From a virus: a DNA stretch of 64,000 nt. Below are positions 13,797 through 17,158 of the stretch, piece by piece. The stretch is taken from positions 62,001 to 126,000 of the IMG/VR virus record IMGVR_UViG_3300027509_000013. One strand, given 5' to 3'. The translations under genes were made by a program, and so were the position numbers. The notes beneath the pieces were generated by a model. The model was given only the letters and a program-made list of their open reading frames with translations. It was not told the origin of the DNA and did not search any database. How positions within the stretch are numbered: position 1 is the first letter of the stretch; every line of letters begins with the position of its first letter.

Positions 13797-13873
13797 TTGG
13801 CACAATAGGATTCGAACCTATGTTTTCAACCGCTATCTTAGTCATGCGTATCAGGCATGCCGATTATGTGCCA
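13797..13873 (-). tRNA. Atypical D-armless tRNA-Ile(GAT)
   Basis: Acceptor TGGCACA/TGTGCCA, T-arm ATAGG-TTCGAAT-CCTAT and a perfect anticodon arm CATGC-CTGATAC-GCATG (GAT). Only TA plus 5 bases (ATCGG) precede the anticodon arm and 21 bases (containing GCGGTTGAAAAC) follow it. AATC may pair with GGTT around the anticodon arm. It and 13386-13462 are the only Ile tRNAs seen, which argues that they are functional. Confidence 0.65.
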
Positions 13874-16781: not shown

Positions 16782-16899
16782 AGGCCAGAGCAGGACTCGA
16801 ACCTGCAACACATCTTATATCGCTAGAAAATAAAGGTGTCTTAAAAATAAGAAGGATACTCCTAAAAAGTACTGCGTCTACCAATTCCGCCACCTGGCC
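16782..16899 (-). tRNA. tRNA-Leu(TAG) with a 49-base variable region
   Basis: Acceptor GGCCAGG/TCTGGCC, Leu-type D-arm (GCGGAATTGGTAGACGC), anticodon stem GTACT/AGTAT around TTTTAGG (TAG), T-arm GCAGG-TTCGAGT-CCTGC. The stretch between anticodon and T arms is 49 bases with two hairpins (CTTA-TTTT-TAAG and an ACAC...GTGT stem), far longer than the usual 13-21. Confidence 0.85.
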
Positions 16900-16904
16900 T
16901 TAGA

Positions 16905-16952
16905 TTTTAAAAATCGTCAGGGGACGATCAATATCCTTCAGAGTCCCCTGAC
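16905..16952 (-). terminator. Hairpin plus T-tract before tRNA-Leu
   Basis: GTCAGGGGAC and GTCCCCTGAC form a perfect 10-pair stem, leftward followed by GATTTTTAAAATC and then tRNA-Leu. Confidence 0.6.
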
Positions 16953-16967
16953 TTTATATGGTACTAT

Positions 16968-17097
16968 GCTTTTACAAGTATTTATGCTGACAATATAAAG
17001 AATCGCTCTACCCCTAAGCTACCCGACCTTGATTGTTTTTTAGAGGTCGGGATGGGATTCGAACCCATGACCTATTCCTTTAGTTTACTTGTAGCCT
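16968..17097 (-). tRNA. Candidate circularly permuted tRNA gene
   Basis: Leftward order is 3' half, 15-base linker, 5' half. The 3' half (17097-17044) has GGAAT, variable AGGTC, T-arm ATGGG-TTCGAAT-CCCAT, acceptor CCCGACC and T73. The 5' half (from 17028) has acceptor GGTCGGG, TA, D-arm GCTTAGGGGTAGAGC, then ATTCT. Acceptor halves pair perfectly, ATTCT pairs with GGAAT as the anticodon stem, and outer flanks TACAAGTA/TACTTGTA pair over 8 bases. The break is in the anticodon loop, so the anticodon is uncertain (ATA or CTA are possible). Neither half has another partner nearby. Confidence 0.6.
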
Positions 17098-17158
17098 TTC
17101 CCATGTATAATCCTGATGCTAAAGCTATTACCTCAACATTAAATCTAATATCTAGCAT
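17072..17158 (-). CDS. 28-residue open frame overlapping the permuted tRNA
   Basis: ATG at 17158 to TAG at 17072, peptide with a hydrophobic middle (NVEVIALASGLYMGKATSKL). Its end overlaps the 3' half of the permuted tRNA. It reads like protein rather than random sequence, but may be a chance frame. Confidence 0.3.
   Translation of the reverse strand: MLDIRFNVEVIALASGLYMGKATSKLKE

What the first reader, a model, noticed from the sequence alone, without database searches (positions are those of the whole stretch)
16968..17097. Apparently circularly permuted tRNA gene
Directly visible: leftward, the 3' half of a tRNA (anticodon-stem 3' strand GGAAT, AGGTC, T-arm, acceptor CCCGACC) comes first, then a 15-base linker, then the 5' half (acceptor GGTCGGG, TA, D-arm, ATTCT). 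The acceptor halves pair over 7 of 7, the anticodon stem over 5, and the outer flanks TACAAGTA/TACTTGTA over 8, bringing the two ends together at the anticodon loop. Permuted tRNA genes are known in some algae and archaea and would be unusual in a phage. A functional one would need joining at the anticodon loop.
Basis: partly seen in the sequence, partly recalled or inferred. Interest (0 to 1): 0.9.

Follow-up and report, generated by a model that had tools for sequence, protein, structure and literature searches.

The report
Y RNA-like tRNA mimic in phage
A phage gene that looks like a tRNA with its two halves swapped is most likely not a scrambled tRNA but a 'Y RNA', a known kind of RNA that imitates a tRNA; it is unusual because the phage lacks the protein such RNAs normally partner with.

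Summary
The swapped-halves layout is real (16973-17093, minus strand): outer stem, anticodon-type stem, T-arm, acceptor strand, 16-nt linker, acceptor strand, D-arm. No dinucleotide shuffle of the 132-kb record scores as high (0 of 150). The window lies in a crAss-like phage record. A joining-dependent permuted tRNA is not the best reading: the same layout marks the tRNA-like domain of bacterial Y RNAs (YrlA). Rfam YrlA matches it full length (34 bits, below the gathering score of 69). In 160 Ro60/TROVE loci fetched here, 45 such elements lie on the Ro60 strand and none on the other. But it is not a standard Y RNA. The phage has no detectable Ro60. The GGNTACTTC motif and bulged Ro stem of Ro60-linked Y RNAs are missing. 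Its acceptor linker is longer (16 nt against mostly 3-11) and begins with C74, as in 17 of 18 tRNA genes of this phage. I place it in an orphan class with elements in Racecar-type Arthrobacter phages and contigs L201, L223 and L255, all without detectable Ro60. No bulge-helix-bulge at the junction, splicing endonuclease or RNA ligase was found. Verdict: new variant of a known kind. A genuinely joined tRNA (anticodon CUA) or a two-piece tRNA is not excluded.

The parts
17086..17093 (-). outer stem, 5' strand TACAAGTA
   Evidence: pairs 8/8 with 16973-16980; chance 0.035
17079..17085 (-). AACTAAA, 5' side of the internal loop; CTA-type bases also stand here in the Rfam YrlA consensus
17074..17078 (-). 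3' strand of the anticodon-type stem, GGAAT
   Evidence: pairs with 16999-17003
17069..17073 (-). variable region AGGTC
17052..17068 (-). T-arm ATGGG-TTCGAAT-CCCAT
17045..17051 (-). acceptor stem, 3' strand CCCGACC
   Evidence: pairs 7/7 with 17022-17028
17029..17044 (-). 16-nt linker TCTAAAAAACAATCAA; begins N73-C74-TAAA like the phage's tRNA-Arg, -Gln and -Lys genes
17022..17028 (-). acceptor stem, 5' strand GGTCGGG
17005..17019 (-). D-arm GCTT-AGGGGTA-GAGC, preceded by TA (17020-17021)
16999..17003 (-). 5' strand of the anticodon-type stem, ATTCT
16973..16980 (-). outer stem, 3' strand TACTTGTA
16984..17104 (-). full-length Rfam YrlA (RF02553) match, 34.0 bits, below the gathering score of 69
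16909..16952 (-). 10-bp hairpin (GTCAGGGGAC/GTCCCCTGAC, 17-nt loop) followed by a T-run; possible 3' end of the transcript. Read by eye: the terminator scan does not call it because its loop is too long for that scan

Best explanation
The element encodes a Y RNA-type tRNA mimic (the YrlA layout) that has lost, or never had, the Ro60-binding part. SHOWN by sequence: a permuted tRNA-like core, an extended arm in place of the anticodon loop, no Ro60 gene found, and no conserved Ro60 motif. INFERRED: it is transcribed leftward as one small RNA that is never rejoined. The T- and D-arms form a tRNA elbow on a closed acceptor hairpin, while the two ends pair into a long arm. It therefore cannot decode, and works by binding proteins that recognise the tRNA elbow and acceptor arm (tRNA-modifying or tRNA-processing enzymes, PNPase, tRNA-cutting nucleases, or a host Ro60), as decoy or tether, to protect the phage's large tRNA set or redirect RNA decay during infection. 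Because the linker starts like a real tRNA 3' end, RNase P and 3' processing may open the acceptor loop and leave a two-piece RNA with a true acceptor end.
For: Rfam YrlA matches full length with 34 bits and is the only YrlA match in the tRNA-rich region of the window. Phage Y RNAs beside annotated Ro60 genes score in the same range: Trax 44.1, csAssE-Sib 28.5. In 160 Ro60/TROVE loci, 45 permuted elements lie on the Ro60 strand and 0 on the other, most just upstream; bacterial Ro60 loci show the same. 17 such phage RNAs have compensatory changes in 18 of 23 consensus pairs, so the layout is a conserved RNA that works unjoined. Sister elements occur in phages and contigs without detectable Ro60: Racecar, Mimi, Talia1610, L201, L223, L255. 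L201's flank (TTCTTAACGCCTTTTAAGC|GGGTGGTC) resembles the Ro60-linked pattern (TACTTCGCC..TAAGC|GGGTGGTC), which points to descent from Y RNAs. Racecar's first element cannot give U33 on joining, so that member is not a decodable tRNA (read by eye).
Against: The YrlA score is below the gathering cut-off, and the YrlA model also rings weakly in 11 of 14 control genomes. In the viral Y RNA model only the tRNA-like core matches, not the Ro stem, and a tandem tRNA pair in the window scores nearly as high (41 against 38 bits). GGNTACTTC is absent; no Ro60 was found. The 16-nt linker exceeds the 3-11 nt usual in Ro60-linked Y RNAs. No expression data; no diverged homologue.
Confidence: 0.6

Rival explanations
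1. A genuine circularly permuted tRNA gene: the ends are cut and joined at the anticodon loop, the linker is removed by RNase P and 3' processing, and CCA is added. With the usual 7-nt loop the joined sequence is UUCUAAA, anticodon CUA (an amber suppressor).
For: All helices and tRNA core positions are canonical. The linker starts T73-C74-TAAAA, as the phage's tRNA genes do (17 of 18 have C74). The orphan class as a whole has C74 (7 of 7 against 7 of 28 non-GNRA Ro60-linked loops, P = 0.0005), and L223 and L255, in which 6 of 8 and 8 of 8 normal tRNAs encode CCA, carry CCA there. The linker length fits known permuted tRNAs (1-74; PMC3978253).
Against: No bulge-helix-bulge at the junction. No RtcB, RNA ligase, Rnl1-type ligase or splicing endonuclease family in the record. 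U33 plus purine 37 also arises in 7 of 24 Ro60-linked Y RNAs. The known examples reviewed in PMC3978253 are algal and archaeal only. Large ORFs read through under the standard code, so no need for an amber suppressor is seen.
Confidence: 0.12
2. A two-piece, permuted tRNA-like RNA: the acceptor loop is cut and the ends matured (with CCA) but the anticodon side is never joined, much as two-piece tmRNA is made from a permuted gene.
For: tRNA-like linker start and longer linkers of the orphan class (7 of 7 against 5 of 39 with 9 nt or more, P = 1.5e-5); extended arm replacing the anticodon loop.
Against: Processing not shown. The orphan set is small (7, one of them, L050, from a contig that has Ro60) and was delimited after the fact. 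The tmRNA_permuted model matches only at noise level (E 4.4).
Confidence: 0.13
3. A non-functional relic left by duplication and deletion of tRNA genes in the array.
For: The locus lies in a tRNA-rich region; no diverged homologue shows conservation; the outer stem alone is within reach of chance.
Against: All helices are perfect. Its nearest tRNAs in the window are only distant matches. The same layout recurs in unrelated phages.
Confidence: 0.12

Closest known systems
YrlA-type bacterial Y RNA (Rfam RF02553), partner of Ro60/Rsr
   Same: order T-arm, acceptor hairpin, D-arm; 5' and 3' ends paired into a long arm; full-length Rfam match
   Different: no Ro60 gene found; no GGNTACTTC and no bulged Ro stem; 16-nt acceptor loop instead of a short loop; score below gathering
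Circularly permuted tRNA genes of algae and Thermofilum (PMC3978253)
   Same: order of halves; complete acceptor, T, D and anticodon stems; linker length in range
   Different: no BHB at the junction; no splicing enzymes found; the layout is shared with Y RNAs
Two-piece (permuted) tmRNA (Rfam RF04321; comparison from own knowledge)
   Same: permuted gene, acceptor loop that could be excised, extended helix in place of the anticodon arm
   Different: full D-stem, no G3-U70, no sign of a tag-coding part; model match only at noise level

Membership tests
YrlA / bacterial Y RNA | permuted tRNA-like domain with D-, T- and acceptor arms | tested here: met
YrlA / bacterial Y RNA | Rfam gathering score | tested here: not met
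   34 against 69 bits; Ro60-linked phage Y RNAs also miss it (Trax 44.1, csAssE-Sib 28.5)
YrlA / bacterial Y RNA | long stem closing the 5' and 3' ends | tested here: met
   8 bp plus short extensions; chance 0.035
YrlA / bacterial Y RNA | Ro60-binding region (GGNTACTTC and bulged stem, as defined here from Ro60-linked RNAs) | tested here: not met
   model R1 matches positions 37-115 only; the 5' flank has GGCTACAAG
YrlA / bacterial Y RNA | Ro60/TROVE gene in the same genome | tested here: not met
   no hit with PF05731, the crAss001 protein, an 11-member alignment, or iterated viral profiles; the record is probably complete
YrlA / bacterial Y RNA | binding of Rsr and PNPase | not testable with these tools
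   needs RNA pull-down
Circularly permuted tRNA gene | 3' half before 5' half with all tRNA stems | tested here: met
Circularly permuted tRNA gene | bulge-helix-bulge at the junction | tested here: not met
Circularly permuted tRNA gene | splicing endonuclease or ligase available | tested here: inconclusive
   none in the phage record; host unknown
Circularly permuted tRNA gene | circular or joined transcript | not testable with these tools
   needs RNA from infected cells

The most novel reading that the evidence does not exclude
Phages rich in tRNA genes carry a Ro60-free class of permuted tRNA genes, probably derived from Y RNAs, whose acceptor ends are matured like real tRNAs, giving either the first permuted or two-piece tRNAs in phages or a chargeable tRNA decoy.
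Probability: 0.22. Interest if true: 0.85.

Novelty: new variant of a known kind. Interest (0 to 1): 0.55.

Why it matters
It explains a striking 'permuted tRNA' as a tRNA-mimic RNA and shows that this layout is a good marker for phage Y RNAs, which tRNA finders miss. The Ro60-free members raise a testable question: what does a Y RNA-like tRNA mimic do for a phage that carries a nearly full tRNA set but no Ro60? It could be a tRNA decoy against tRNA-cutting defences, a tether for host RNases, or a step from Y RNA to a permuted tRNA.

Tried and rejected
(1) Simple permuted tRNA needing joining: kept only as a rival. (2) Permuted group I intron: no intron family matched the region. (3) Permuted tmRNA: noise-level match only. 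(4) Searches for homologues of the element: exact acceptor pattern in IMG/VR, distant blastn in phages, and neighbour-protein search gave only an identical contig or unrelated hits. (5) YrlA search over about 46 crAss-like terminase relatives: no convincing permuted element. (6) Model R1 does not separate the element from tandem tRNAs, so its score is not used as evidence. (7) Non-permuted tandem tRNAs were removed from the comparison with ARAGORN; one leftover in L223 (2756-2844) was dropped by hand before the final Fisher tests. (8) The key papers on YrlA (PMC4201824, PMC6281776, PMC6047535) are not held; reviews were used.

Full report
Observation. All stems pair: acceptor 7/7, T 5/5, D 4/4, anticodon-type 5/5 (one G-U), outer 8/8. 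The linker is 16 nt, not 15. ARAGORN misses it. A scanner written for permuted cloverleaves gives it the top score of 30; the next in the 131,999-base record scores 24.5, and none of 150 dinucleotide shuffles reaches 30. A second contig from another dataset is 99.99% identical over the stretches compared, so it is not an assembly fault.

Setting. The window is 62001-126000 of a virus record. Its terminase is closest to Cellulophaga phage phi14:2 and other Crassvirales. The record is probably complete and circular: its ends share 9 bases and one reading frame stays open across the join. The window holds 18 ARAGORN tRNAs plus three found only by Rfam. Downstream of the element lie a hairpin with a T-run (read by eye; not called by the terminator scan) and a Leu-like tRNA.

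What it is. A low-threshold Rfam search matched YrlA, the Y RNA-like family, over its full length (34.0 bits, gathering 69). No other place in the tRNA-rich region matches YrlA. YrlA is described as a tRNA mimic whose ends form a long stem and whose domain resembles the D, T and acceptor arms of tRNA (PMC8394870). The YrlA model is not specific by itself: tandem tRNAs reach 24-26 bits and many control genomes ring weakly.

Independent test. I fetched Ro60/TROVE loci from viruses and bacteria and ran the scanner. In 160 loci, 45 permuted elements were found, all on the Ro60 strand, none on the opposite one, 42 of them upstream. Seventeen aligned phage examples show compensatory changes in 18 of 23 pairs. 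Permuted tRNA-like RNAs are thus the ordinary companions of Ro60, in bacteria as well, and they function unjoined.

How this one differs. The phage has no TROVE gene by Pfam, by the crAss001 protein, by an 11-member alignment or by iterated viral profiles; those profiles do find divergent Ro60-like genes that Pfam misses. The invariant-looking TACTTC motif is absent; note that the 17 aligned examples had been selected for it, but most other Ro60-adjacent elements carry it or a close variant. A covariance model of Ro60-linked phage Y RNAs matches only the core of this element. Similar elements without the motif occur in Arthrobacter phages Racecar, Mimi and Talia1610 and in contigs L201, L223 and L255, none with detectable Ro60. 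As a group, with L050, they have longer acceptor linkers (7 of 7 with 9 nt or more, against 5 of 39, P = 1.5e-5) and C at position 74 (7 of 7, against 7 of 28, P = 0.0005). In this window 17 of 18 tRNA genes also have C74, and Arg, Gln and Lys continue CTAAA as the element does. L223 and L255, whose tRNAs mostly encode CCA, have CCA there. These comparisons are small and were framed after seeing the data.

Joining. There is no bulge-helix-bulge at the junction, and no RtcB, RNA ligase, Rnl1-type ligase or splicing endonuclease in the record. A canonical-looking joined loop (UUCUAAA, anticodon CUA) can be written, but U33 with purine 37 is also found in 7 of 24 Ro60-linked Y RNAs, so it is not evidence. 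Known permuted tRNAs are reported from algae and an archaeon (PMC3978253).

Mechanism. Most likely the RNA is a stable tRNA mimic that binds tRNA-recognising host proteins through its elbow (inferred). Whether its acceptor loop is opened is the main open point.

Verdict. The layout is real and meaningful; the permuted-tRNA reading is probably wrong, though not excluded; the element is best called an orphan Y RNA-like tRNA mimic, a new variant of a known kind.

Noticed in passing
window 16782-16899 (-): Leu-like tRNA (Rfam 42.5 bits, missed by ARAGORN) with about 49 nt between anticodon stem and T-arm; loop TTTTAGG reads as anticodon UUA, i.e. a possible stop-codon suppressor, directly downstream of the element.
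   Followed up: partly
window 13797-13873 (-): tRNA found only by Rfam (39.7 bits) with an irregular anticodon arm; CTA lies in the loop but without U33. Possibly degenerate.
   Followed up: partly
window, all tRNA genes: 17 of 18 ARAGORN tRNAs have C directly after the discriminator base but few encode CCA.
   Followed up: yes
L015:5810-6716 and L016:7179-7702: Next to the TROVE genes of crAss001 and cr106_1 lie tRNA-like RNAs in normal (not permuted) order whose anticodon arm is replaced by a long arm with GTGTAG..TTACTTCAA, the motif of Ro60-linked Y RNAs; they match model R1 full length.
   Followed up: partly
L017:5756-5900: In phage csAssE-Sib an annotated tRNA-Lys sits inside a Y RNA-type stem (GTGGTGATGGGGTTAGTTACTTC..TTCCCTC).
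   Followed up: no
L206:848-2308, L252:8378-9793, L254:4373-5755, L215:5422-7155, L249:2775-4301: Divergent Ro60-like proteins that Pfam TROVE misses; in L206, L252, L254 and L215 they lie near permuted elements whose 5' flank carries ACAGCAA (or a close form) instead of TACTTC.
   Followed up: partly
L009:11591-14501: Protein kinase, PP2C phosphatase and VWA-domain genes in a row.
   Followed up: no
L008:3959-5560 and L008:10279-11451: A chaperonin (Cpn60) gene and an IS605 OrfB/TnpB-like gene in the phage record.
   Followed up: no
L007:927-16010: One ORF of 5027 aa in the phage record.
   Followed up: no
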